This document shows positions 1-55,764 of a stretch of 64,000 nucleotides of DNA, in pieces. Position 1 is the first letter of the stretch. Each line of letters starts with the position of its first letter. A program made the position numbers and the translations under genes. The DNA comes from Xanthostigma xanthostigma (lineage: Eukaryota; Arthropoda; Insecta; Raphidioptera; Raphidiidae): contig OY754469.1 in NCBI GenBank assembly GCA_963575645.1, forward strand, positions 37,964,753-38,028,752, written 5' to 3'. The notes below the pieces were generated by a model. The model was not told where the DNA came from. It made no database searches and was given only the letters and a program-made list of their open reading frames with translations.

Positions 1-842
1 AGAAAAAAATTCACGACAAAAATAGAAGAAATGTAAATTCTTCAGGAAGGACTATGCCCTTCCTAGCCCTACGGCTTTATATCACGGTCATTTCATTCTA
101 GAAAACATGTATATTTAATAATTTAAGTTTTTGCATTATTTTTTAAAATGTGAATTTACTTGATATTGAAATGCTATTTCGAAAGTTTATATTCAAACAT
201 TTTTCGGTAGGTCTTTAAGGAACGTGAAAATTTGTAATGTGTGAATACAAAATCGAAGACCTGGCTGAACTGTAGTGGGGTCTATCCAAACCGGGAGTAT
301 TTTACTTTTCGAAATTTTATTTGCACTTTTAGAAATGTTGGAAGGTGTCACCCTATATAAAATAATAATGTCATGGATTCAGCGCACTCGAAAACATATT
401 TCTAGAGCTTAGGATTTTTTAAGATTGTGAATTCAATGGATATCCCTATATCTAAAATCTTGCTAAACATATCTGTAACTAAAAATCGATTAGTTTTTAG
501 GCTATGCGCCCATGGACACTTTTTCTTAGTGACCTTTAAACTATAAAATAAAACTATTTTCGATTAATTTAACCGAGAACCAAATCCTATAAGAGTCGGG
601 TCTAAATGTTTGCCAATTACCTACCCAAAAATGTTTGAAAGCTCTCGTACTATATTAATGGCCTTGAGAATAGTTGTCTGGTTTAACCCTTTGTTGTTTA
701 CTTGTTTTGTTTATGATTTCTATAAAGTACTTACATAGGTACGTTTAAAAGAAAGCAGACGCACATTTTACTTCATTACTTTTGTATAATATATAAATAC
801 AGTCGGACTCCGTGTATTGTCAACACTATCTACAGGGGGGGG
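1..842. repeat. Decayed repeat pieces at left edge
   Basis: No gene seen. Positions about 185-310 resemble part of the intron element at 21036-21440 (shared AAAATCGAAGAC...GGCTGAA stretch). Positions about 335-598 are a partial copy of one half of the inverted-repeat element at 13274-13805, without its GGACCCC terminus. The rest is unassigned AT-rich DNA. Confidence 0.6.
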
Positions 843-1361
843 TCAGAAAGGCGTACGATTTTAAAAACACTCTTGCGTTTGAACCTTATGAGAGGGGGCT
901 GCGCGGGTGGTGGGGTTGAGAAGCTCGGTTCTCGGAAATTTAGTCGCGATGGATCACTTCACCGGAGCGCAACGTGCATTCTGCGTTAAACATTATTACA
1001 TTATTTCCAGTGACAGATTGCCCTTGTTGATTTTCAAAGAAATAGGGTCCGATAATTCAGTGCGCTGATATGGCCGCTCAAACGGTTACTTTTGGCGATA
1101 GCAGAGGCTTTTGATGTTTTGCACGTGGGTTCTCTGCGGCCCAGTAACGGCAATTCTGTCTATTGACATGCCCATTTAAGTGAAAATACACGAATCGCCA
1201 TTTTTGTAATAATGTTTAACGCAGAATGCACGTTGCGCTCCGGTGAAGTGATCCATCGCGACTAAATTTCCGAGAACCGAGCTTCTCAACCCCACCACCC
1301 GCGCAGTCCCCTCTCATAAGGTTCAAACGCAAGAGTGTTTTTAAAATCGTACGCCTTTCTG
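843..1361. repeat. Nearly perfect 157-bp-arm inverted repeat
   Basis: Arms at 843-1000 and 1205-1361 are reverse complements with about one mismatch plus a small edge difference, around a 204-bp spacer. The arms are GC-richer than the surroundings. The stretch could be a foldback element or a source of hairpin RNA. It ends about 400 bp upstream of gene A. The short reading frames in each arm are mirror shadows. Confidence 0.9.
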
Positions 1362-1771
1362 GTCCACCCGTTATTTTAAACTGATTTTCACTATGTATTT
1401 TCATGTTTTTAATTCCTACTTTTCACGAAAAATGTCTCCCCCTACGCTGCTGAGTTAATGGAAATATACATTAGATAACTCGAACTAATAAAGACTTTTT
1501 TTCTGATTGGTCTGTGATTAACATGAAATGAGGGTGAAGGAGACGCTGAAAACACATGATTCGCTTAGTCCCGTTAAGTTGAAAATATCTTAGTTTTACT
1601 GTATCTTGATCATGTGAAGAAAAGATATGCTCACGCGTAAGCAAAACTCATCTCTTGCAACCAATCGATCTGATAGATAATGTAAAAGTGATTTAAAATT
1701 AACTTGCAAGGTTTGACCTAAACTTACTCACAGGAAAATGAAAGTTTGAAAAAACCTTTATTTATATATTC
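1362..1771. other. Upstream region of gene A
   Basis: AT-rich, no repeat recognised. A CTCACAG before 1735 and a TTTTTTTCTAG before 1816 are acceptor-like, so an untranslated or coding upstream exon may exist. No convincing core promoter was seen. Confidence 0.4.
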
Positions 1772-4700
1772 ATGTCATCTCGGTGCATCATATTTATAGA
1801 AGTCTTTTTTTCTAGATACGTTCCGATAGGAGGAGGGAGATTCGTTCCAAGAGACAGAGACAAAAAATACAAAAATAAGAGCAGTGCTACAGAAAAAATG
1901 ATTGTCACAGACAGTGAACTTAAAGATTTTGAGTCACCAATAGCCTCGATATTAAACGAGATGTTAGATAAAATCGAGGCGGAGCAAAATATTATCGTTG
2001 ATATGAATGAGTTGAGTACATTTTCTTCTGATGATAACTCTTCAGATATTGAAATAACCGAAGTAATTAATGTTGAAGATACGAATAGATTACAAGATTC
2101 AAAACATTATACAACTATTGAAGATTTCTATTCAAATGGTAAACTATTCGAAAAATTTGAAGACAAGTCATTTCTCGAAATGTACGAAAGTGGACAGGAA
2201 GTGAGTGTTCTAAATATGGCATCGAACGTAGAAAAGATGGAAACATCTGGTTTGTCTATAGAGAAGGAAAACATTGTCGTTAACGATGACTTGGCAATAA
2301 ATATGTCCCAAAAACTAAGTCCGCCTAAAAAACAAAAAATTGAAAAGTTACTTTCCAAAGATGATAATTTAGAAAAGTCATGTAAAAAGGCCAAAATCGA
2401 TTCAAAAAAATCAGGTACGAAAGATACGTCCGAATTATTAGAAAAGCAGCAGAAAAATACGCAAAAACGAGAATCTGCTGTAAATTCTGATCTTGCAAAC
2501 GGAGATGGCTATTTAAGAAATGTTAAAGAAATTGGCACGAAAAGTGGTACTTCCGAATTAAGCCACAAAAAATGTACACAAGAGAAACGAAAATCCGAAG
2601 AAGGTCCGATTCAAGTTACGCATGATTTGTCCAAGTTTCATAATTCAGAAGATTCACATAAAAATGTTAAAAACCTGGGCACGAATTATTCCAAATTATT
2701 GAAAAGCCGCAGACAAAATACCCCAGAACGAAAAAAATCGGGAGAACGTCCGGTTCAAGTTACGCGTGATTTGTCCAAATTTCATAATTCAGAAGATTCC
2801 TGTAAAAATGTCAAAAAAACGGACTTGAAAAATGGTACTTCCGAATTAGTGGAGAGCCGCAAAAATAGTACCCCAGAGGAAAGAAAATCTGGAGAACGCC
2901 CGGTTCAAGTTACGCGTGATTTGTCTAAATTTCATAATTCAGAAGATTCCTCTAAAATTATCAAAAAAACGGACGTAAAAAATGGTACTTCCGAATTAGT
3001 GGAAAGCCGCAAAAATAGTACCCCAGAGGAAAGAAAATCTGGAGAACGCTCGGTTCAAGTTACGCGTGATTTGTCTAAATTTCATAATTCAGAAGATTCC
3101 TCTAAAATTATCAAAAAAACGGACGTAAAAAATAGTACTTCCGAATTATTGAAAAGCCGTAAAAATAGTACCCCAGAACGAAAAAAATCGGGAGAACGTC
3201 CGGTTCAAGTTACGCGTGATTTGTCCAAATTTCATAATTCACAAGATTCATCTAAAAATATCAAAAAAACGGACGTAAAAAATGGTACTTCCGAATTATT
3301 GGAAAGCCGTAAAAATAATACCCCAGAACGAAGAAAATCGGGAGAACGTCCGGTTCAAGTTACGCGTGATTTGTCCAAATTTCATAATTCAGAAGATTCC
3401 TGTAAAAATATCAAAAAAACGGACGTAAAAAATGGTACTTCCGAATTATTGGAAAGCCGTAAAAATAGTACCCCAAAACGAAGAAGATCCGGAGAACGTC
3501 TGGTTCAAGTTACGCGTGATTTGTCCAAATTTCATAATTCAGAAGATTCCTCTAAAAATATCAAAAAAATGGACGTAAAAAATGGTACTTCCGAATTATT
3601 GGAAAGCCGTAAAAATAGTACCCCAAAACAAAGAAGATCCGGAGAACGTCCGGTTCAAGTTACGCGTGATTTGTCCAAATTTCATAATTCAGAAGATTCC
3701 TCTAAAAATATAAAAAAAACGGACGTAAAAAATGGTACTTCCGAATTATTGGTAAGCCGTAAAAATAGTACCCCAAAACGAAGAAGATCCGCAGAACGTC
3801 CGGTTCAAGTTACGCGTGATTTGTCCAAATTTCATAATTCAGAAAATTCCTGTAAAAATATCCAAAAAATGGACGTAAAAAATGGTACTTCCGAATTATT
3901 GGAAAGCCGTAAAAATAGTACCTCAGAACGAAGAAAATCCGCAGAAAGTCCGGTTCAAGTTACGCGTGATTTGTCCAAATGTCATAATTCAAAAGATTCC
4001 CGTACAAATGTTAAAAAGATGGACACAAAAATTGGTACTTCGAGATTATTGGAAAGCCACAGAAAAAGTACCCAAGAAAGGAAATCCGAAGAAAGATCAG
4101 CTCAAATTAAGAGTAATTTAGACGAAAATTGTCGGGAAATTGTCTCTGAAACAAAAACTGTCAAAATTAATACATGTGAAAAAACTATTGTCAATCAAAA
4201 TGTCAGTTTAAAAATTAATACGGTTTCTAAAAGACAAAAACCTGATAAAATGACACAAAAAGAAAAAAAACATGTGGAATTGTTCAGTGAGGTAATAAAT
4301 GAAAGTACGAAAGGTCGTGTAAACAGGCATTTTTCAACAGAAATAAAAATTGATAAAATTTATCGATTTGTAAAAAATCGAAAACATTTAAACAAATACG
4401 AGTTGAAGAAATTTTGGAAATTTTTAAAATGTTTGAATAAAAAAACAGTAAATGAACATTATGGCATTCTAAAAGATCAGCCATATATCAAGCTTGGAAA
4501 AGCAGTTGCACAGTTACCTTTGGTGATTAATGATTCCTCATCTAACAAGAAACAGGAGATAGTCAGTTTTGAGCTAGAAGAAGTAGAAGAAAAGTTTCCC
4601 AGTCCCAGCGAAAGCATTTCTGAAATGGCCGAATTAAATTTTGTCAGAGATGGTTTAGTTACCGTCGTGCGTTTAGATGGTGGTGCAAATAAATCATATG

Positions 4701-7700
4701 CCGAACAGTTAGCTAATTTGAACCAAACTGAACAGTCGAATAATGCATTTGGCCAGATGTCTGATTCAGACGCAATTTTCGCCCAAATATCTGAACAGTT
4801 AGCTAATTTGGACCAAATTGAACAGCCTAATAATGCAGTTGCCCAGGTGTCTAAATCAAACGCAATTATCGTCCAAATATCTGAACAGTCAGCTAATTTG
4901 GACCAAACTGAACAGTCGAATAATGCATTTGGCCAGATGTCTGATTCAAACGCAATTTTCGCCCAAATATCTGAACAGTTAGCTAATTTGGACCAAATTG
5001 AACAGCCTAATAATGCAGTTGCCCAGGTGTCTAAGTCAAACGCAATTATCGTCCAAATATCTGAACAGTCAGCTAGTTTGGACCAAACTGAACAGTCGAA
5101 TAATGCAGTTGCCCAGATGTCTGACTCAAGCGCAATTCTCGCCCAAATATCTGAAATCCTAGATTCAACATGTATGCAAACAGAGGAACAAGTGCCATTA
5201 AAAACTAATGCTTGTTCGCAAACTGAACCAGAATTAATCGATCTAACTGGAGATGATAACATAAAAATAGAGTTGGATGAAACAGATTCAACAGTCAGCA
5301 GCACTACTGTCTTTCGTCTGAAAGTAAAAGATCCGTTCAGCTTAGGCATGTTTTCGGAAGAACATGTGAAAACAATTAACGTCGTTACAAAGCATATTAA
5401 TCGGCTTATGATTGAGCGTATGTGTTACAAAATGTGTCTTGATACATGCATCAATGACGCGGATTACATAAAAAGGCGCACGTTACAGCACCGTCAAAAC
5501 CTTAATGAAATTTTAGATGAAATTGTTTTGGAATTAAAAGAGAATATGGAAATCTTAGGTAACTCTAATTTCTATCAACAAGTGTCCGTTGAAATAACTA
5601 AATTAAAAAAATTCAAATTCGACCCCAAACAATCTTTTGAACAGTTATGGCGTATCTTTAAACTTCGCCCTGCGGCGTTTAAATTGGCGAGACCTTTTTT
5701 TAAATCCGCCAGTGAAATTCTACAGGCCCCTTTTGACGGCGATAGTTTAGAAGCTGTTAATCAATGTCATGAAAATACTGCAATTAGGCTGTCACATCAA
5801 CAGCACTCTGCAACCGATCAAGAAAGTACAACACCAATTCAGCTGAACGGTAATCAATATCAATTGACTACTAGTCAAGCAACGACACAAACATCATACC
5901 AACAACTAGAGAATCAACATATGCCAGATATATCGCAAAATAATTCAATGTTGTCAACACAATTGAATCAACCTGCAACTGCAATCATGATGTCACATCA
6001 ACGGCACTCTGCCACTGATCAAGAAATTATAACGCCAAGTCAACTGCGCGGTAGACAAAATCAATTGGCTACTAGTCAAGCAAATACACAAACATACCAA
6101 CAGCTAAATAATCAACATCCAAATGTATCGCAAGATAATTCAATGTTCTCGGCGCAATTGAATCAATCTGTAACTGCAATCATGCCGTCACATCAACGAC
6201 GCTTTGTCACTAATCAAGAAAGTACAACACCAAGTCAGCTGAACATTAACCTAAATCAATTGGCTACTAGTCAAACAAGAACGCAAACATCATATCATAT
6301 GCCGAATATATCACAAAATTATTCAATATCGTCAGCACAATCGAATCAACCAGCAACTGCAATCATGATGTCACATCAACGCCACTCTGCGACTGATCAA
6401 GAAAGTATAACGCCAAGTCAGCTGAACGGTAACCGCAATCAATTGACTACTAGTCCAGCAAGGACACAAAAATCATATCAACAGCTAAATAATCAACATA
6501 TGTCGCAAAATAATTCAATGTCGTCAGCACAATTGAATCAACCTGCAACTGCAATTATGATGTCACATCAACGGTACTCTGCCACTCAGAAGAGTACTAC
6601 AGCAAGTCAGGTGAACGCTAATCAAAATCAATTGGCTACTAGTCCAACAAGGGCACAAACATCATACCAACGGCTAAATAATCAAAATATGCCGAATGTA
6701 TCGCAAAATAATTCAATGGCATCAGCACAATTGAATCAACTTTCAACTGCAATCATGATGTCGCATCAACGGCACTCTGCCACTGATCAGGAGAGTACTA
6801 CAGCAAGTCAGGTGAACGCTAACCAAAATCAATTGGCTACTAGTCAAGCAAGGACACAAATATCGTACCAACAGCGAAATAATCAACATATGCAGAATGT
6901 ATCGCAAAATAATTCAGTGACGTCAGCACAATCGCATCAATCTGTACCTTTGAACTATATGGAAATGATGTGTCGTGTTTTTCCTCCTAATATGAATCAT
7001 CCTCCCCCGCCCTATAACTCACAGAAAAACAATTCTCAAAATGTTTCCATGCCTTCTTCCGGTACATTTAGATCTATTCCAACTCATCAAGATGTATATT
7101 CTCGTAATAATTCAGTCCTTCCTCAGTTTTCGGGAAATGCAAATATGAATCATCCCCCGGCGCCTAATAATTCACAAAACAATTATTCTCAAAACCTTTC
7201 CATGTCTGCATCCAGTACATTTAGATCTATTCCAACTCATCAAGATGGATATAATGGTAATAATTCAGGCCTTCCTCATTTTTCGGGAAATGCAAATATA
7301 CCAATGAATGTCAGACCACCACCTCCTACATATTTTCCCACTCCACTACAACAACTATCCGGTTTGATTCAGCAGCCACCCAGTATTAATTCAAACAATC
7401 AAAATGGACAGACGTTGAGACAATTTCGACCTCCGCAGAGGCAAAAAGGCGGTCAGAAAAAACACCCCGCACAAAAACCTAATCGTCGCCAAGGCACCAC
7501 TGACCCACAGCAAGTGACAATTCCGCAAAACTGTATTCCTACCATTGTATCCCGTTACGTGACAGCAGCCGGTCAACAGATCGGATCTGGTCTCGTGACA
7601 AATTACATGGCCCCTGAACTTGGTCACCCACAGCACGGACCTGGTTTACAAATCGGGTACATGGACCCAACTACAAATACAGTACCTGAACGTACCCATC

Positions 7701-8176
7701 AACAGGATTTAGACTCCAGAAGCGTAATTCAAAACGCAAATACCATGCAAGAACAACGCGCACCTCATCAAGTGCAAAAAACATCTTTAACAACTAGCGT
7801 GAAGGCAACTACAGGTAATGTTGCTAAGAAAGCGGCTACTAAACTAAATACCCAAAAGCGACCCGTAGAAACGAAGAAAAAAAATGAATTAAGTTCGGCT
7901 GTCACGGATCCTTTAAATACACGTTTATTGACAGCTAAAGCGAATGAAATAGAAAATTCAGTTATGCTATCCGGCGTGTATATAGATAGCGACGGCCATC
8001 CGATTCTTGAAAGTGGCGCTTTAAAAAACTCCGATGCAAAATTCATTCAGGAATATTTCGAATCTGGATTCATGTTTCCCAAAAGAGAACCTGAATCTGA
8101 ATTGCCGACAGTTCCGTCCAATTTTGTGTCGACCACTCTGCATCCTGCGAATAGAAATAACAATTATGGTCAAACG
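1772..8176 (+). CDS. Gene A, long exon: giant repeat-built protein (ends in MYND finger)
   Basis: The reading frame runs open to a stop at 8183-8185, but a donor (ACG|GTACGA) at 8177 joins in phase 0 to the acceptor before 8439, giving a protein of about 2,221 residues with a C-terminal MYND finger. Seen in order: an acidic N-terminus; a 50-residue tandem array (residues about 280-780) rich in K/R and S-T-P sites; a basic helical stretch (about 830-910); five 30-residue repeats (about 978-1127); LIDLTGDD (1155-1162), a strong SUMO-interaction motif, followed by IKIE, which fits a sumoylation site; a conserved-looking helical block (about 1186-1320); six Gln/Asn-rich repeats (about 1338-1727); a PPPPY WW-binding motif (1744-1748); and a basic tail. 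The start is uncertain: a pyrimidine-rich acceptor precedes 1816, so the exon may begin there, and Met43 (1898) has a good context. I do not recognise the family; a nuclear scaffold or regulator is inference. Confidence 0.85.
2617..4116 (+). repeat. 150-bp (50-residue) coding tandem array in gene A
   Basis: The landmark TACGCGTGAT recurs at exactly 150-bp steps at 2761, 2911, 3061, 3211, 3361, 3511, 3661, 3811 and 3961. A diverged first copy sits at 2617 and a decayed partial one after 4050. Each unit encodes VTRDLSKFHNSEDS, a Lys-rich linker, GTSELLESRKNSTP and a basic ERRKSGER run. The fixed period and high identity of the central copies point to recent unequal exchange or gene conversion. 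Confidence 0.95.
4703..5152 (+). repeat. 90-bp (30-residue) coding tandem array in gene A
   Basis: Five units start at 4703, 4793, 4883, 4973 and 5063, each opening with a GAACAG that encodes EQ. Two unit types alternate (AFGQMSDS and AVAQVSKS forms), so the array is a 180-bp higher-order repeat that has itself been duplicated. The encoded pattern, EQLANLDQTEQSNNA...AQIS, could form amphipathic helices. Confidence 0.93.
5782..6950 (+). repeat. Six 183-201-bp Gln/Asn-rich coding repeats in gene A
   Basis: A sequence encoding SHQRHSATDQ recurs near 5792, 5993, 6188, 6371, 6563 and 6761. Spacing varies from 183 to 201 bp because of in-frame indels. The encoded units are rich in Q, N, S and T, resembling prion-like or phase-separating segments. 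They are more diverged than the 50- and 30-residue arrays. Confidence 0.9.
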
Positions 8177-8438
8177 GTACGATAATTTGGTAAAATTACG
8201 ATTTCCGTGGCGCCAAAGTTTAAAAATAAATTTCTACTGTCTTTTGAACAACAATTAAAGATTATCTACTTTAAGTTATTTTATTAATTTAATCATTTTC
8301 AAGATACCTTGGCGCCACGAATCTCGATAAAAAAATTGCCTTTGTGAGATTGAAAATTTTCCGGAAAGACATAGTGGAAAATTTTCCTATCACTACTCAA
8401 ATAGACTGATTTGCTCACCGCAATATTTTTATTTGCAG
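8177..8438 (+). other. Gene A last intron (262 bp, GT-AG, phase 0)
   Basis: The intron begins GTACGA and ends TTTATTTGCAG. Retaining it would add only Val-Arg and a stop, so an unspliced transcript would lack the MYND finger. It holds a small inverted repeat around GTGGCGCC: about 8202-8219 against 8303-8322. This could form a stem that brings the two splice sites together or blocks them; that is inference. Confidence 0.75.
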
Positions 8439-8699
8439 GAGATTCATCAACAACCGTCGATTGAGCCTGTTAGAGTGAACTCGGTTGATAGTGGTTATTT
8501 ATCAACGGACAGTGTTCTCTCACCATCATCGGTGTTTCGGTTGTGCGCCGGTTGCAACAAACCGAGCACAATTGAGTGTGAACAATGTCACGTCGAGACG
8601 TACTGTTCTCGCGAGTGTCGTGAACAGTGCTTACGAGAGTTTCATAGCCAAGTGTGCTGTACGCTAAAACCACGAAAAAGATGTCTGCCAGCAGAATAA
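8439..8699 (+). CDS. Gene A, last exon: MYND-type zinc finger
   Basis: Eighty-six residues in phase 0 with the long exon. The N-terminal part contains DSGYLS, which fits the DSGxxS phosphodegron pattern read by beta-TrCP-type ubiquitin ligases. It is followed by a Cys/His-rich module: CxxC, then CEQC, then YCSREC, then H and C spaced as H-x3-C. This is the MYND order of zinc ligands, although the third helix is one residue longer than usual and has Phe where Trp is common. MYND fingers bind proline-rich partner peptides (PxLxP type) and act as protein-docking domains, mostly in nuclear regulators. The protein ends in a basic tail. The TAA stop lies inside an AATAAA (8695-8700). Confidence 0.85.
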   Translation, partial: EIHQQPSIEPVRVNSVDSGYLSTDSVLSPSSVFRLCAGCNKPSTIECEQCHVETYCSRECREQCLREFHSQVCCTLKPRKRCLPAE

Positions 8700-8850: not shown

Positions 8851-8856
8851 AATAAA
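8851..8856 (+). terminator. Candidate poly(A) signal of gene A
   Basis: AATAAA about 150 bp after the stop. A second AATAAA overlaps the stop codon at 8695-8700, so a very short 3' UTR is also possible. Confidence 0.5.
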
Positions 8857-11544: not shown

Positions 11545-12262
11545 AAATATGACATTAATCCTTGTGTGCCCACGGCTGGTGTACTTCATGTCAATAATTG
11601 TTTTGATCATTTGTCATGGCAAAGAGTCATTAGACAACAGTGAAACGTGGCCAGTTCTGCCATTAATCCTGGTGCTTGATGTCAAATGTTTTGATCATTT
11701 TTCATGGCAAAGAGTCATTGAACAACAGTGAAACGTGGCCAGTACTGCAATTAATCCTGGTGCTTGATGTCAAATGTTTTGATCATTTGTCATGGCAAAG
11801 AGTCATTAGACAACAGTGAAACGTGGCCAGTACTGCCATTAATTCTGGTGCTTGATGTCAAATGTTTTGATCATTTTTCATGGCAAAGAGTCATTGAACA
11901 ACAGTGAAACGTGGCCAGTACTGCAATTAATCCTGGTGCTTGATGTCAAATGTTTTGATCATTTGTCATGGCAAAGAGTCATTAGACAACAGTGAAACGT
12001 GGCCAGTTCTGCCATTAATCCTGGTGCTTGATGTCAAATGTTTTGATCATTTTTCATGGCAAAGAGTCATTGAACAACAGTGAAACGTGGCCAGTACTGC
12101 AATTAATCCTGGTGCTTGATGTCAAATGTTTTGATCATTTGTCATGGCAAAGAGTCATTAGACAACAGTGAAACGTGGCCAGTACTGCCATTAATTCTGG
12201 TGCTTGATGTCAAATGTTTTGATTATCGTCACTGAACACCGGTGAAACATGAGTGGTACTGC
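11545..12262. repeat. 88-bp minisatellite with 176-bp higher-order period
   Basis: AAAGAGTCATT recurs at 11621, 11709, 11797, 11885, 11973, 12061 and 12149, exactly 88 bp apart. Neighbouring units alternate between ATTAGACAACAG and ATTGAACAACAG forms, so the recently amplified unit is 176 bp. Decayed copies reach back to about 11475 and on to about 12510. Each unit carries GTGAAACGTGGCCAGTACTG and TTTTGATCATTTGTCATGGC. Confidence 0.95.
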
Positions 12263-21440: not shown

Positions 21441-21808
21441 CGGAGACCCAAATAATAAACCCAGTCGTTCTTGATAAAAATAATGTTATAGATTTTAAAC
21501 TAAATTGAAATGCGTTTTAATTTATTTAAACCTAAGAAGTATATTTCACAACATTATTATTTCGCACAACACAGAGCTTTTGGTTGATGAAGCCACTGTG
21601 CAGTTTAAGATCTGCGTTTGACGAAGTCACTCTGTTGTACAAAACAATTAGGGATTCGGCAGAAAAATATCTTAAACTTTCTTTAACGAAGTGTGGTTTA
21701 ATATTATTGACTGACGAATCCACTTCTACGAAACGGTTGTTAAACAAACAATAATTTCTAAGTGTATAGAATGTGTTTTCTTTAATTTTAAAATTTATTA
21801 AATTACAG

Positions 21809-23110
21809 GGCAATGGTTGCCTTGAATATCGAAACAGAAGACGCTGCAAAAATGCAATCAAGAATTACGAACACCTCTGTAAAATTCTCAGTAAAGATTA
21901 CAACAGTACGTTAATTGTATCTTTAGTAGCATTTTTTGTCGAAAGTCGTATGTGGCCACGTGAGTTCATGTGCATTGAATTGTTGAAGAAGGCATTAATC
22001 GATGATTCGTCAAGTGAAAAATGTATTTATTGCTTGCTGACATTAATAGAAGAACAGTCAGTGACTGATATCAAAATTGCCAGACAAATAATGAGGGTAC
22101 TTTATGGTATAATCGAAATGCATGCTTGGAGAGAAATAAAATACAATTTACTCGATCGAATTGTCGAAATGTTTCATCAAAGTATAATACCATCGGAAGA
22201 TGCTAAATATAACTACATTCCTTTAAGAAAAGGTTTGGAAGTTTGCATGCGTCGTCTTTTAGAAAACATTCCGAACGATAATTTGTTAATCGTTATCGAA
22301 ATGATGATCAAGTGGACTGTGGATGAAAGATTGATCGATGAATGTCTTTTGGATTTTGGTAATGTCCTTGAATACGCTGCATTACTGCATAACACAGGCA
22401 TCTATAAAAATACGTTGACCCAAGGTCTGTTTCCAATGGTACTCCAACTGATAGCTTCAGACAATCGACTACTAAGTTTATTGGGCAATAGAATCTTACA
22501 GCATCTACTCGATCGTCATAAAAATCGATTGCAGTTCGATACACCGCGTATTTATTTTCAAAATTCGCATTTCAATATCGTCATCGGTGAATATCATCCG
22601 GAAGATAAATCATTTTATAAGAAGTATCGTTCGATGATCCACGACAGCTTGATGGCATCAATAAACCAACACGGAGTCCATAGATTGAATCTGGACAGTT
22701 TGTTTTGTACGATAGCTTTGTTGATTGTTGAAATACCTTGCGGCTATACGGCTGCGGCCGTTGTTTGTCTCGGCATGAATATCCAAGAGTGTATATTGGC
22801 TGATGAATTTATTAGTTTGTCGTGCGCACACAGGGTACATGCCACCATTATGTCATTAATGTCGCTGGTCTGTTGGGTTCACAATGCTAAAGTATTCTAT
22901 GATTATCTAAATGAATTAATTGGCTTGCGAGCTCAAATGGCGCCTCATCTTAATCCGCCTTTAATGGCTTCCTATCAGTATGCACATCATCATGTACTTT
23001 GGAACAAGAAAGAATTATTTTTTGATGATTGGGAGGTCAGGTATGGTCTTTGGAAATGTTTTAAAACTGAAAATGCAGATGGGGAAACGACCAGTTCAAC
23101 TTTAGTGTAA
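21809..23110 (+). CDS. Gene B exon 3 (main body, helix-rich)
   Basis: Acceptor AAATTACAG before 21809; 433 codons then TAA at 23108-23110. The frame is open upstream to 21773, but the acceptor and phase favour 21809. The protein is a run of amphipathic and hydrophobic helices, as in ARM/HEAT solenoids: e.g. WPREFMCIELLKKAL, IARQIMRVLYGIIEMHAW, LRKGLEVCMRRLLENI, LFPMVLQLI, SLMSLVCWVHNAKVFYDYL. It has no signal peptide, zinc finger or catalytic motif. The C-terminus is a Trp/His-rich block (YAHHHVLWNKKELFFDDWEV) and a short acidic tail. Solenoids of this type serve as protein-binding scaffolds; the partner is unknown. Codon use is normal and there are no internal breaks. Confidence 0.88.
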   Translation, partial: GNGCLEYRNRRRCKNAIKNYEHLCKILSKDYNSTLIVSLVAFFVESRMWPREFMCIELLKKALIDDSSSEKCIYCLLTLIEEQSVTDIKIARQIMRVLYGIIEMHAWREIKYNLLDRIVEMFHQSIIPSEDAKYNYIPLRKGLEVCMRRLLENIPNDNLLIVIEMMIKWTVDERLIDECLLDFGNVLEYAALLHNTGIYKNTLTQGLFPMVLQLIASDNRLLSLLGNRILQHLLDRHKNRLQFDTPRIYFQNSHFNIVIGEYHPEDKSFYKKYRSMIHDSLMASINQHGVHRLNLDSLFCTIALLIVEIPCGYTAAAVVCLGMNIQECILADEFISLSCAHRVHATIMSLMSLVCWVHNAKVFYDYLNELIGLRAQMAPHLNPPLMASYQYAHHHVLWNKKELFFDDWEVRYGLWKCFKTENADGETTSSTLV

Positions 23111-28496: not shown

Positions 28497-28888
28497 ATGT
28501 CGCAGTGATATTGTCAAACCAGTAATATTAAAATTTCACTTAGTGAAATTATAATATCACGAAACTTTTTCAATCGTGCAATTATAATTTTTTTTTTTAG
28601 GGTGTATCCAATTGTATATATCCACATATATAGAGCATATGCACATATACAAGAGTATATCACTTGGGGATGGCACTACCTCTTGCTATCTGGCCAGTAT
28701 CATTAAATTTCAAAGCTGGGTCTAAACGACAAACACAAAATATCCATGAGCAGAGGTGGGATTCGAACCCACGACAGTGCGATCCAAAGGCCAGCGTGCT
28801 TAACCATTACACCACGCTGTCCTCCAATTATAAATTCACTAGTGAAATTATATCACAGGTTTGACAATATCGCTGCGACATTATATAA
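28497..28888. mobile_element. Palindromic MITE, TGTCGC family, copy 2, split by a SINE
   Basis: TGTCGCAGTGATATTGTCAA and TTGACAATATCGCTGCGACA ends. Same interior ATTTCACTTAGTGAAAT as copy 1, but interrupted by the tRNA-headed insert 28590-28825. Confidence 0.88.
28590..28825 (-). mobile_element. tRNA-derived SINE (Gln-like head), minus strand
   Basis: Reading the minus strand: head GGAGGACAGCGTGG with a pol III A box TGGTGTAATGGTTAAGCACG and B box GGTTCGAATCC, then a body of about 150 bp ending ACACCCT and a run of about 12 A. Flanked by AATTATAA-type target duplications (28580-28589 and 28826-28836). The head most resembles tRNA-Gln (GGTGTAATGGTTAGCAC...CTTTG). The anticodon stem no longer pairs, so it is not a working tRNA. 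Confidence 0.88.
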
Positions 28889-29972: not shown

Positions 29973-31584
29973 CAGGGTGTTTGGCACATGAACCGACACA
30001 ATTTTTTGGGGGGTTCTCGTGGTCATTGTGATCATTTTAACCCCAATGACTTTTGCCCTAAGTGTCATGGTTATCGAGATACGATTTTTTTTAGTTATTT
30101 TCGAAAATCGGCCTAAAAATTGCCTTCAAAAAATCGTAACCTGTTTGTTTTTGGTACTAGAGACACGAAAATACATTTATTGAGTTCTCGAATGACTCCT
30201 TGTTCTAAATGAATCGTAATTTTATGCAAATAGTATCAGGAAAAAGACCCTATGGACTTTTAAAGTGCCTGTATAAATAAAAACCAGTAGGAAAAAATAA
30301 TTTAAAAATCATTTTAAAAAAAATTAAGGGGTATTTAGAAATTAGTTTTGTTTAGAAAAATACTCCACTTTATCCTCTTTTCAACGATATGCCACATGTC
30401 ATATTTATCATTCAGAATGTAGCCAAATTAAACATTACCAGTTTGCAAGAGTCAACTCGTGCGCCAAAAAATATCAAGTCAGGTAGTCAGCCGTTATGGA
30501 TCTAGGATGTAAATAACAAAAATCTTATTGGGCCGTTTTATTTACCCCAACGCTTAAACGGAGATGCATATTTGGAATTTTTAGAGAATACTCTCCTAGA
30601 GTTATTGGCAGAAGTGCTTGCGTACGAAGAAGACGTACCGATAGTGTTTCAGAATGACGGTTGTCCGGCACATTACCAACGATCAGTACGCGAGTTTTTA
30701 AATTATTCTTTCATCAATTCGTGGATTGGAAGAATGGGCCCAATCCCGTGGCCCGCGCGATCCCCAGACCTGGCACCTATAGATTTTTATGTCTGGGGAC
30801 GTGCTAAAGATCTAGTATACGCAACGGAGGTACCCAGCAGAGAAAATTTAATAGAAAGAATAGATGCTGCATTTGAATAATGAAAAGGGAAATGCTTTTG
30901 AGAACAACAACTGTTGAAATTAGAAATAGGTGTCGTGCTTGTATATCCGATGTGGAGGGGCACAATTTGAGCAAATTTTGTAATCATTGTCTACCTGTTT
31001 AACAGTCAATATCGTTTAATGAAAAGTGAAACAAGACTTGTTATTTACATCCTAGATCCATAACGGCTGACTACCTGACTTGATATTTTTTGGCGCACGA
31101 GTTGACTCTTGCAAACTGGTAATGTTTAATTTGGCTACATTCTGAATGATAAATATGACATGTGGCATATCGTTGAAAAGAGGATAAAGTGGAGTATTTT
31201 TCTAAACAAAACTAATTTCTAAATACCCCTTAATTTTTTTTAAAATGATTTTTAAATTATTTTTTACTACTGGTTTTTATTAATACAGGCACTTTAAAAG
31301 TCCATAGGGTCTTTTTCCTGATACTATTTGCATAAAATTACGATTCATTTAGAACAAGGAGTCATTCGAGAACTCAATAAATGTATTTTCGTGTCTCTAG
31401 TACCAAAAACAAACAGGTTACGATTTTTTGAAGGCAATTTTTAGGCCGATTTTCGAAAACAACTAAAAAAAATCGTACCTCGATAACCATGACACTTAGG
31501 GCAAAAGTCATTGGGGTTAAAATTATCACAATGACCACGAGAACCCCCCAAAAAATTGTGTCGGTTCATGTGCCAAACACCCTG
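29973..31584 (+). mobile_element. 1,612-bp Tc1/mariner-like element with 547-bp inverted ends
   Basis: Ends CAGGGTGTTTGGCACATGAA / TTCATGTGCCAAACACCCTG with TA duplications (29971-29972 and 31585-31586). The inverted repeats extend for about 547 bp (29973-30519 and 31038-31584) with only a few mismatches, leaving about 520 bp of unique interior. That interior is the C-terminal third of a DDE transposase. Normal relatives have short ends and a gene of about 1 kb, so this is a rearranged, non-autonomous copy. Confidence 0.92.
30517..31002 (+). pseudogene. C-terminal part of Tc1/mariner-type transposase (DD41D-like spacing)
   Basis: The open frame from the inner edge of the left repeat reads NLIGPFYLPQRLNGDAYLEF, then VPIVFQNDGCPAHY and WPARSPDLAPIDFYVWG. 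The Asp of QND and the Asp of PID are separated by 41 residues, as in DD41D Tc1/mariner groups. The frame stops at 30878-30880; the expected continuation (MLLRTTTVEIRNRCRACI) follows in another frame. The first catalytic Asp and the DNA-binding domain are absent, replaced by inverted-repeat DNA. Confidence 0.87.
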
Positions 31585-51154: not shown

Positions 51155-52046
51155 ACCCTGCAGGCCATCCCTGTAACTTCCCGCTATTTTCGAGTTCAAA
51201 ACGCTCAAAAATATGTCAAATATAGCAAGAAGTTTATTTTTTAGCTCTTCGAGCTCAAAAAAAAACACTTTGTTACGAAATTTTCGTTCACGATATCTCA
51301 TGAACAAATGAAGCGATTTTGATGCGATTTGCGGCAGTCGACGCAATTTTTTAACCTTAAAAAGTAATTTTATACAGAAAAATCGATCTCATAGGAATTT
51401 TACGAGAAATTTAAAAAAAAACACTTTTTAAAAATTTTTCGTTCACGATATCTCGTGAACAAATGAGCCGATTTTGATGCGGTTTGCTGCAATCGACGCA
51501 GTTTTTTTAACCTAAGAAAGTAAATTATTACAAAAAAATCGATTTGATAAGAATTTTACGAGTAATTTTAAAAAATTACTTTTTTCCTAATTTTTCGTTC
51601 ACGTTATCTCATGAACAAATGAACCAATTTTGATATGGTTTGCGGCGATCGACGCAGTTTTTTTAGCTTAAGAAAGTAATTTATTACAAAAAAATCAATC
51701 TGATAACAATTTTAAGAGTCATTTTAAAAAAACACTTTTTTACGATTTTTTCGTTCACGGTTTCTCGTGAACAAATGAACCGATTTTGATGCGGTTTGCG
51801 GAAATCGACGCAGTTTGTTAAGGAGAAGAGCTGATTAGTTTTTGGAATTAATCGGTTTAGTAGTTTAGAAAATTTTTTACAAAAACAAATTTTTAAAAAT
51901 TTTTGAAACTTGTTTTTTTAAGATTTCTCAAAATTTTTTGGGCCGAATCGTTTCAAATTTTCAGGAAGTCTAAGTTCACCAAGATCACGTCAGATGCCGC
52001 AAACCACGTTTCAGTCGGACACTCCGTTCAAAAGATATAAAAGGTT

Positions 52047-54191: not shown

Positions 54192-54545
54192 ACTAGCGGT
54201 CCCGTCCTGTTTCACCCGGGTGTAAAAGAACGAATGGGGAAGGGAGGAACATGAGTACACACATTCATCTTAGTTTACCGAGATGAATGTTGTGTACAAA
54301 TTTCATGATGATCGGAGTTACCGTTCAAAAGCTTTTGTCGATAAAAATCATTATTTATACTTTTTTAAACTTATAATTTTTTTTTAATTAATTAAATAAA
54401 ATTAAATTAAAGCAATGTAGAAAATAAAAAAAATAAAAATATTTTCGCCCAACGTGGGGCTCGAACCCACGACCCTGATATTGACAGTCGCACGCTCTAC
54501 CGATTGAGCCATCCGACGCTAATATGAGTATATTTAGTTAGTGCA
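54192..54545 (-). mobile_element. tRNA-headed SINE with ACTAGCGG tail, minus strand
   Basis: On the minus strand it runs from a tRNA-like head (54446-54520), through AT-rich body and ACGGTAACTCCGATCATCAT, to CACCCGGGTGAAACAGGACG and CCGCTAGT. This ties the ACTAGCGG family to a tRNA-type promoter and gives its orientation. Confidence 0.7.
54446..54520 (-). repeat. tRNA-like SINE head (Lys-like), not a working tRNA
   Basis: A box TGGCTCAATCGGTAGAGCG and B box GGGTTCGAGCCCC on the minus strand. The D arm and T arm pair well, but the acceptor and anticodon stems do not. Overall closest to tRNA-Lys (GACT...GAGGGTC layout). Confidence 0.75.
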
Positions 54546-54832: not shown

Positions 54833-55764
54833 TAAAGGCTGATTTTTTAAGAGTGTCCGAACTTCTATCCGAGAAGGCTATGAAATGAACTATCACTTTT
54901 CGCGCTTGTAGTGTCAGAATTATTCAGTATAGTCTGGCAAATCATTATGGAAAGAATAACACCAGAGCAATGCTTGCAAATTGTCCAAATTTATTATCAA
55001 AACCAGTGTTCTGTGCGCCAAACTTATAGAGCACTTCGTGGATTCTATGGTGCCCATAATCGCCCAATCGAACGATGTATTCGCCGATTTATAGACAAAT
55101 TTTGAACGCAATTTACATTACTCGATATTAAAACAAAAACCAGACAAATCTGTGCGTTCCCAAGAAAATATCGCCGCTGTAACTGCTAGTGTTGATGAAG
55201 ACCCAAATTTATCAATTCGTAGACGTTCGCAAGAAGTTGGGCTTTGTTATTCGACTACGTGGACAATTTTGACTAAAGATCTTGGTCTGGTGCCTTACAA
55301 GATCCAGCTTATCCAAGAACTTAAGCCGCAAGATCATCGTTTGCGTCGTACGTTCGCTGAATGGTCTCTTAGTCAATTGCAACTTGATCCAGAATTTTAC
55401 CGCAAAATTTTGATCAGCGAAGAAGCTCATTTTTGGTTAAACGGTTACGTCAATAAACAGAATTGCCGCATTTGGAGTGAAAATAATCCCACAATGATTC
55501 AACAATTGCCGTTGCATTAGAACACAACATAACGCGGACAATTGCAGACATAAGTCCCCAATTGCTTGAAAAAGTGGTCAGAAATTGGATTGACAGAATG
55601 CGCTTTGTTAGAAGAAGCCGCGGCGGATATTTGACCGAAATTATTTTCAAACATTAATGCCATTAAATGTTATTTCACATAAAATAGATAGTTTAGAGAT
55701 ATCTAATATAGTTGTTGTTTAATTTAAATGTAAAGTTCAGACACTCTTAAAAAATCAGCCTTTA
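54833..55764 (+). mobile_element. 932-bp Tc1/mariner-like element, internally deleted
   Basis: Ends TAAAGGCTGATTTTTTAAGA and GTGTCCGAAC / GTTCAGACAC and TCTTAAAAAATCAGCCTTTA, flanked by TA. It carries an N-terminal half and a short C-terminal piece of one transposase. The deletion between them removed the region holding the second and third catalytic Asp. One in-frame stop, one frameshift and one deletion are visible. Confidence 0.92.
54947..55657 (+). pseudogene. Broken Tc1/mariner-type transposase
   Basis: From ATG 54947: an HTH region, ITPEQCLQIVQIYYQNQCSV then RQTYRALRGFYGAHNRPIER, a stop at 55103-55105. Another frame follows with SQENIAAVTASV, LSIRRRSQEVGL, YKIQLIQELKPQDHRLRR and ISEEAHFWLNGYVNKQNCRI. 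The first catalytic residue, normally Asp in SDEAHF, is Glu here. After LPLH the protein jumps to the C-terminal NWIDRMRFVRRSRGGYLTEI IFKH. Family members are about 340 residues; this has roughly 225 residues of sequence left. Confidence 0.9.

What the first reader, a model, noticed from the sequence alone, without database searches (positions are those of the whole stretch)
1772..8699. Giant repeat-built protein ending in a MYND finger
One gene combines three independent coding tandem arrays, a SUMO-interaction motif beside a sumoylation consensus, a PPPPY WW-binding motif, a DSGYLS degron-like motif and a terminal MYND finger. The architecture matches no family I can name and suggests a fast-evolving docking scaffold, possibly nuclear. 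The motifs are seen; the role is inference.
Basis: partly seen in the sequence, partly recalled or inferred. Interest (0 to 1): 0.7.

Follow-up and report, generated by a model that had tools for sequence, protein, structure and literature searches.

The report
Repeat-built insect MYND-finger protein gene
This looks like a working, fast-changing insect gene for a protein of about 2,200 amino acids, built largely from internal repeats and ending in a small zinc finger whose usual partner-binding residues have changed; its job is unknown.

Summary
The gene looks real. A 2,147-codon open frame (1742-8185) joins by a phase-0 intron (8177-8438) a terminal exon that lacks any ATG and encodes an eight-ligand MYND finger (Pfam E 4e-5, just over its cut-off). 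Three large coding arrays (10x50, 5x30, 6x61-67 aa) and a two-copy one are confirmed. The start at 1772 is doubtful.

New: chromosome C10 of the same genome holds one truncated, partly frameshifted genomic duplicate with, by eye, one array-1 anchor (window ten) and one array-2 unit (window five). dN/dS is 0.75 (0.53-1.10), yet the window copy lacks the roughly 9-12 stops expected under neutrality in the homologous codons alone: kept, but fast-evolving. The MYND keeps its zinc ligands but has R and L where DEAF-1, ETO and BS69 use Gln and Trp to hold peptides, so classical corepressor docking is unlikely.

Best reading: a disordered multivalent scaffold, probably nuclear, with a changed MYND. 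No RNA-seq and no other eukaryote's proteins were available, so orthologues and function stay open.

The parts
781..1816 (+). Non-coding 5' flank or intron shared with the C10 duplicate, interrupted in the window by a 539-bp inverted-repeat element (833-1371) flanked by TA
   Evidence: blastn: 781-832 = c10 5050-5099 (81% of 52, E 3e-6) and 1372 onward = c10 5098 onward, so C10 looks like the empty site; TA on both sides; 14 near-full-length matches including itself at 90-100% identity in the genome, a lower bound
1817..8176 (+). Large coding exon (2,120 codons from the acceptor-like site at 1815; start codon unresolved: 1772, 1898 or an upstream exon)
2321..2412 (+). Lysine-rich stretch that looks like a nuclear localisation signal (PPKKQK ... 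KSCKKAK); basic character kept in the C10 duplicate
   Evidence: read by eye from the translation; no predictor was run; alignment
2568..4078 (+). Array 1: ten copies of a 50-aa K/R/S/T-rich unit (...TPERRKSGERPVQVTRDLSKFHNSEDS...)
   Evidence: TRF; ten anchors spaced 144 then 150 x8; eight inner units of ten pN/pS 0.57; one diverged anchor in the C10 duplicate, read by eye
4250..4564 (+). Unique segment 1, predicted mainly helical at very low confidence; shared with the C10 duplicate
   Evidence: AF2 single sequence, pLDDT 48; alignment
4703..5155 (+). Array 2: five copies of a 30-aa Q/N-rich unit in an alternating A-B-A-B-A pattern
   Evidence: TRF 90 bp at 87% and 180 bp at 96% matches; one unit in the C10 duplicate
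5234..5272 (+). SIM-like core LIDLT followed by IKIE (psiKxE)
   Evidence: SIM core P 0.011 (looser pattern 0.104), psiKxE at chance level
5321..5776 (+). Unique segment 2, predicted all-helical, no second copy found in the genome
   Evidence: AF2 single sequence, pLDDT 64, six helices; no Foldseek PDB match with E <= 0.001; no Pfam or PDB sequence match; only itself at E <= 1 in the genome
5777..6944 (+). Array 3: six Q/N/S/T-rich units of 61-67 aa
   Evidence: 30% Q+N, 26% S+T
6989..7299 (+). Array 4: two copies of a 51-aa unit
7004..7333 (+). Two PPxY motifs (PPPY at 7004-7015, PPTY at 7322-7333), possible WW-domain ligands
   Evidence: coordinates by arithmetic from residue numbers
8177..8438 (+). 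Intron, phase 0, GT...AG (predicted, no reads)
8439..8699 (+). Terminal coding exon with stop codon; MYND finger at 8544-8657, DSGYLS at 8487-8504; AATAAA at 8851 downstream

Best explanation
A functional, rapidly evolving, apparently lineage-restricted insect gene for a disordered multivalent scaffold of about 2,200 aa, probably nuclear. The arrays supply many copies of short interaction or phosphorylation sites: array 1 is basic with RRxS and TP sites, arrays 2 and 3 are Q/N-rich. Two PPxY motifs could hold WW-domain proteins. The C-terminal MYND is a folded zinc module that binds a partner through a surface different from the classical PXLXP pocket. Valency changes by gain and loss of whole in-frame units. 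Shown: gene anatomy, coding arrays, MYND zinc ligands, an open frame kept against neutral expectation, copy-number difference between duplicates, loss of the Gln/Trp pair. Inferred: splicing in vivo, disorder, nuclear location, scaffolding, partners.
For: Open frame and coding arrays. No stop in the window copy where 38-50 are expected under neutral drift since the duplication, or 8.6-11.5 over 404 codons of the homologous segments. Array 1 has ten anchors and array 2 five units, the C10 duplicate one of each (the C10 anchor by eye). Charged, Q/N- and S/T-rich composition. PPxY x2 and RRxS x15 exceed shuffles. MYND keeps eight zinc ligands.
Against: No transcript, protein or orthologue evidence. 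Nuclear location rests on lysine-rich stretches seen by eye. The RRxS excess comes mostly from repetition of one unit, and the TP site of array 1 is TQ in the C10 copy and at both ends of the window array. The MYND lacks the canonical Gln and Trp, so it may bind no partner. dN/dS includes 1 in its interval (0.53-1.10). Structure predictions were poor (pLDDT 48 and 64). The window copy was flagged because its frame is open, which biases the no-stop count.
Confidence: 0.45

Rival explanations
1. A fast-evolving germline or chromatin-conflict factor (for example in transposon silencing, telomere capping or meiosis), with repeat turnover and divergence driven by an arms race.
For: dN/dS 0.75, large repeat-number change and a broken duplicate; a SIM-like core, a kind of motif that SUMO-dependent silencing proteins carry (recalled).
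Against: No chromatin, Tudor or DNA-binding domain over its Pfam cut-off; fast evolution is also what weak constraint on disordered sequence gives; no expression data.
Confidence: 0.2
2. A classical MYND corepressor adaptor of the DEAF-1, ETO/Nervy or BS69 type, with the MYND recruiting corepressors that bear PXLXP-like motifs.
For: C-terminal MYND; nearest PDB fingers ZMYND10, DEAF-1 and CBFA2T1, all weak (E 0.023 to 0.66). MYND binding modes vary: BS69 also needs a basic residue just after its finger, and this finger is followed by KPRKR.
Against: No SAND, TAFH, PHD, bromo or PWWP match in Pfam. Of the binding residues named for DEAF-1 (Met512, Glu514, Thr516, Gln529, Trp533) only the Glu is kept in the phmmer alignment (residue numbers placed by me). 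Gln and Trp, whose mutation largely abolishes BS69 peptide binding, are R and L.
Confidence: 0.07
3. A gene decaying towards a pseudogene: long open frame by inertia, little function.
For: dN/dS near 1 with the duplicate; the C10 duplicate is broken at its 5' end and truncated.
Against: No stop in 2,120 codons, expected 38-50, or 8.6-11.5 in 404 homologous codons, for a branch divergence of 0.12-0.16; array periods of 150, 90, 201 and 153 bp are multiples of 3.
Confidence: 0.08
4. A structural or secreted repeat protein (silk, egg or venom type) that happens to carry a zinc finger.
For: Q/N/S/T-rich arrays; if translation starts at 1772 the N-terminus is hydrophobic (CIIFIEVFF).
Against: That stretch lies in what looks like the pyrimidine tract of a splice acceptor, and the C10 duplicate has no ATG at 1772; lysine-rich nuclear-type sequence; MYND fingers are intracellular in described proteins (recalled). 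No signal-peptide predictor was run.
Confidence: 0.08
5. Two genes wrongly joined: the MYND exon belongs to another transcript.
For: The splice is predicted, not observed; the duplicate ends before the MYND.
Against: The MYND frame (8331-8699) has no ATG, the donor lies 6 bases before the stop of the big frame, phases agree, both sites score in the top 2% of the window.
Confidence: 0.04

Closest known systems
DEAF-1 MYND (PDB 4a24, 2jw6)
   Same: C-terminal MYND with the same zinc-ligand order; phmmer E 0.033 and 0.049
   Different: No SAND match; one residue more before the His; Gln529->R, Trp533->L, Met512->T, Thr516->E in the phmmer alignment, residue numbers as named in PMC3555993
ZMYND10 MYND (PDB 2d8q, 2dan)
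   Same: Best PDB sequence match for the finger, E 0.023
   Different: The genome has a separate finger that by eye is far closer to ZMYND10 (L004/L011, with Gln and Trp); the match covers the finger only
ETO/Nervy (CBFA2T) and BS69/ZMYND11
   Same: MYND near the C-terminus of a transcriptional adaptor (recalled)
   Different: No TAFH, PHD, bromo or PWWP match found; the Gln/Trp pair stated to be conserved in ETO, DEAF-1 and BS69 (PMC4742278, passages) is absent
Arthropod SMYDA-like MYND fingers (family assignment recalled; PMC5459927 seen in a search listing only)
   Same: Three fingers of this genome that I read as this type (L005, L007, L010) also lack the Trp and have C-x8-H
   Different: SMYD proteins carry a SET domain (recalled); no SET match in this protein
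C10:12241718-12243446 duplicate in the same genome
   Same: Genomic copy covering non-coding flank, N-terminus, array 1, unique segment 1 and the start of array 2, 59-70% aa identity
   Different: Two frameshifting gaps and a TGA at the 5' end, one array-1 anchor and one array-2 unit, about 58 extra residues; nothing matching segment 2, arrays 3-4 or the MYND exon was found there

Membership tests
zf-MYND (PF01753) domain | Curated Pfam cut-off of 22.7 bits | tested here: met
   24.0 bits, E 4.2e-5; not among the 22 places of the whole-genome search at E <= 0.001
zf-MYND (PF01753) domain | Eight zinc ligands C4-C2HC | tested here: met
   CAGC...CEQC...YCSREC...H...C; zinc binding itself not testable here
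Peptide-binding (PXLXP/PPPLI) MYND of the DEAF-1/ETO/BS69 kind | Conserved Tyr, Gln and Trp of the binding site (PMC4742278, passages) | tested here: not met
   Tyr kept; Gln->Arg and Trp->Leu in the phmmer alignment to DEAF-1; no Trp anywhere in the exon. Of ten other distinct fingers legible, six keep Gln and Trp and four do not (one of the four, L016, is a weak match that Pfam did not list); an eleventh, L015, is cut by an intron
DEAF-1 family | SAND domain | tested here: not met
   No SAND match in Pfam scans of the big exon and of four of its segments
ETO/Nervy family | TAFH (NHR1) domain | tested here: not met
   No match
SMYD family | SET domain | tested here: not met
   No match
Known insect orthologous group | Orthologues in other insects | not testable with these tools
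   No eukaryotic proteome or genome other than the window's own was searchable; one viral-contig scan with segment 2 found no relative

The most novel reading that the evidence does not exclude
A genetic-conflict scaffold (for example in germline silencing) that tunes its valency by gaining and losing whole in-frame repeat units and has swapped the ancestral MYND corepressor pocket for a new partner surface, so that a copy-number-variable protein sets the strength of a nuclear assembly.
Probability: 0.1. Interest if true: 0.65.

Novelty: new variant of a known kind. Interest (0 to 1): 0.33.

Why it matters
MYND fingers are best known as peptide adaptors. One that keeps the zinc ligands but has lost the residues that hold the peptide, at the end of a mostly repetitive protein, would show how an old module is re-used in a young scaffold. 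The duplicate with one anchor against ten gives a within-genome comparison of coding repeat growth. Otherwise it is one of many fast-evolving orphan repeat proteins.

Tried and rejected
Pfam HrpB_C scored over its cut-off for the whole protein (54 bits against 25, E 2.7e-14) but with no stretch passing on its own and a best stretch of 17 residues inside array 1; rejected as repeat noise. CinA_KH, LAMTOR5 and DUF3231 were below their cut-offs. Viral relatives: a viral-contig scan with segment 2 matched 3 patterns but no relative; an exact 26-base pattern from the window's first 120 bases found nothing.

Structures: segment 1 folded at pLDDT 48 and was not searched; segment 2 at pLDDT 64 gave 464 Foldseek matches with E <= 10, none with E <= 0.001. 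The viral and pdb_via libraries were not searched.

5' exon: a candidate ATG exon about 8.5 kb upstream (L024:2879-3047, good donor) leaves one base. That does not fit the acceptor at 1815; by arithmetic it would fit the weaker AG at 1798-1799 (85.7th percentile). It has no convincing counterpart beside the C10 copy (best E 0.42). Not adopted, not excluded. C10 upstream of about 5067 is sequence shared with L024 at 93-99% identity, probably a recent repeat, so it could not show the first exon.

Species: no TTAGGx5 or TCAGGx5 match; no paper naming 623.3 Mb found. An ecdysone-receptor exon of the genome is closest to PDB 2nxx, ahead of 4ozt and 1z5x and far ahead of 1r20 (that these come from Tribolium, Bovicola, Bemisia and Heliothis is recalled). 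This says insect; the order is not settled.

dN/dS: a first pooling of ten array-1 units gave 1.0 because the outer ones were out of register; the eight inner units in register gave pN/pS 0.57, first and last dropped. Array 2 pooled gave 2.4 on 9 pooled synonymous differences, not interpreted. A MYND regex caught 5 distinct fingers, this one included, so I read the 16 loci L001-L016 directly. These cover 10 of the 22 Pfam places; the other 12 were not read.

Literature: searches returned no papers. Searches (15 of 22 listed; 15 of 1,448; 15 of 76; 12 of 29) gave lists; no listed title or abstract start describes this architecture. Passages only of PMC3555993 and PMC4742278 were read.
Full report
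Observation. The window is G000:C6:37964753-38028752 of a 623-Mb, 28-contig genome. The + strand holds one open frame of 2,147 codons, 1742-8185, against 446 for the next longest; chance is about 10^-61 at the window's stop frequency. Tandem Repeats Finder finds four arrays inside it: 2568-4078 (150 bp x 10.1), 4703-5155 (90 bp x 5), 5777-6944 (201 bp x 6) and 6989-7299 (153 bp x 2). These periods are multiples of three. The uneven spacings of array 3 (201, 195, 183, 192, 198) were measured on anchors in the translated frame, so an out-of-frame unit would not have been seen; the count of six agrees with Tandem Repeats Finder.

Gene model. The frame ends 6 bases after a donor at 8177 (ACG|GTACGA) and continues in phase 0 at 8439 after TTTTTATTTGCAG. 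With weights recalled from memory the donor lies at the 98th and the acceptor at the 99.6th percentile of the window's GT and AG sites. The open frame that holds the MYND (8331-8699) has no ATG, so it needs an upstream exon. AATAAA follows at 8851. The 5' end is unsettled. The acceptor-like AG at 1814-1815 (94.8th percentile) is kept in the C10 duplicate and the ATG at 1772 is not; the AG at 1732-1733 scores a little higher (96.3rd) and would fit a start at 1772, but it is not kept at that place in C10. The protein is 2,221 aa from 1772; by arithmetic 2,206 from the 1815 acceptor and 2,179 from ATG 1898.

Families. zf-MYND is over its Pfam cut-off (24.0 bits against 22.7), marginally: the whole-genome search at E <= 0.001 lists 22 fingers and not this one. 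HrpB_C is also over its cut-off for the whole big exon, but without any passing stretch, and I discount it. Five segments, four of this gene and one a neighbouring frame, gave no family over its cut-off. The 207-aa stretch 5156-5776 has no PDB sequence match at E <= 5; the MYND exon's PDB matches are weak, E 0.023 at best. The rest of the protein was not compared with PDB. Segment 2, modelled from a single sequence, is all-helical at pLDDT 64 with no Foldseek match at E <= 0.001. In the own genome, 5156-5776 and 6989-8176 find only themselves at E <= 1.

A duplicate on C10. The whole big exon finds one relative at E <= 0.1, C10:12241718-12243446 on the minus strand, in four pieces 59-70% identical. 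DNA similarity starts in non-coding sequence (window 781-832 and 1372-1815; 74% over the 395 aligned columns of 1372-1815, with 78 gapped columns) and ends near window 5175, so it is a genomic, not a retroposed, copy. Between the two upstream blocks the window alone carries an inverted-repeat element, 833-1371, flanked by TA; most simply it inserted after the duplication. The C10 copy has gaps of 10 and 5 bases and a TGA near its 5' end, followed by a 529-codon open frame that runs into unrelated sequence. It has, read by eye, one diverged copy of the array-1 anchor (ten in the window), one array-2 unit (five in the window), and about 58 residues that the window lacks. Copy number therefore differs since the duplication; window units are more alike (91% matches) than seven inner units are to C10 (68-71%), which favours expansion or homogenisation in the window copy over loss in C10.

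Selection. Over 395 aligned codons dN is 0.21, dS 0.28, ratio 0.75, bootstrap 0.53-1.10. That alone does not reject neutrality. The two copies sit in one genome and are equally old, so each branch carries roughly 0.14 neutral changes per site (dS 0.28; non-coding flank 0.32 in total). At 0.12-0.16, 38-50 stops are expected in the 2,120 codons of the window copy, or 8.6-11.5 in 404 codons of the homologous segments; none is there. The C10 open frame, 509 codons up to the end of homology, would have gathered 10-14 and also has none, so that copy was constrained for most of its history and was damaged late, or still codes for a shorter protein. Cautions: both frames were picked because they are open, and the whole-frame estimate assumes arrays as old as the duplication. 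Eight inner units of array 1 give pN/pS 0.57.

Motifs. In 1,000 shuffles (seven patterns, no correction) psiKxE is at or below chance (1 seen, 2.63 expected), DSGxxS has P 0.073, the SIM core LIDLT P 0.011 but a looser SIM pattern P 0.104, two PPxY P 0.001, nine [ST]P-basic sites P 0.058, fifteen RRxS in 0 of 1,000 shuffles. The RRxS excess is mostly one unit repeated. The TP site of array 1 is TQ in the C10 copy and at both ends of the window array (translations), so it is probably not ancestral.

The MYND. All eight ligands are present, with C-x8-H instead of the C-x7-H of DEAF-1 and ZMYND10. PMC4742278 (passages read) states that Tyr540, Gln546 and Trp550 of BS69 are strictly conserved with ETO and DEAF-1, and that mutating Gln546 and Trp550 largely abolishes peptide binding. 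PMC3555993 (passages read) names Met512, Glu514, Thr516, Gln529 and Trp533 for DEAF-1. In the phmmer alignment to DEAF-1 (residue numbers placed by me) the window finger has the Tyr kept, Gln->Arg, Trp->Leu, Glu514 kept, Met512->Thr, Thr516->Glu. There is no Trp in the exon. Six of ten other legible distinct fingers of this genome keep Gln and Trp (10 of the 22 Pfam places were read, plus L016). So the fold is probably kept and the classical pocket is not. PMC3555993 also shows that MYND binding modes vary and that BS69 needs a basic residue after its finger; the basic tail KPRKR here leaves some other peptide binding open.

Interpretation. Shown: a coding gene kept open, coding arrays that differ by whole units, a fast-changing sequence, and a MYND without the known pocket residues. 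Inferred: disorder and multivalency from composition, nuclear location from lysine-rich stretches and the MYND, WW partners from PPxY. No transcript data and no other eukaryote were available, so 'lineage-restricted' is provisional: it means no credible Pfam family beyond the MYND, no PDB sequence match for the one unique stretch searched, and one relative in its own genome.

Noticed in passing
window 833-1371: 539-bp inverted-repeat element flanked by TA (MITE-like); 14 near-full-length matches including itself at 90-100% identity and many partial ones among 145 listed (40 of 77 candidates scored, so a lower bound); absent at the C10 duplicate.
   Followed up: yes
window 11599-12223: 88-bp minisatellite, 7 copies at 94% matches, 3 kb downstream of the gene.
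   Followed up: no
window 51259-51816: 156-bp tandem repeat, 3.6 copies.
   Followed up: no
window 21770-23110 (+): 446-codon open frame with no Pfam match at E <= 5; looks like a helical-repeat protein by eye.
   Followed up: partly
window 30506-30880 and 55095-55520 (+): Open frames that read like mariner/Tc1 transposase fragments (by eye, not searched).
   Followed up: no
L024:2879-3047: Plausible short ATG exon with a good GTATGT donor about 8.5 kb upstream on the same strand; phase does not fit the 1815 acceptor but would fit AG 1798-1799 (arithmetic).
   Followed up: partly
L022:249-1748 and L022:5293-6768 (C10): Two long open frames (499 and 491 codons), transposase-like by eye, lie about 6 and 1 kb downstream of the truncated duplicate, on the opposite strand.
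   Followed up: no
window 54454-54511 and 28748-28821 (-): Two tRNA-like Rfam matches barely over the gathering score (30.1 and 30.0 against 29), possibly tRNA-derived repeats.
   Followed up: no
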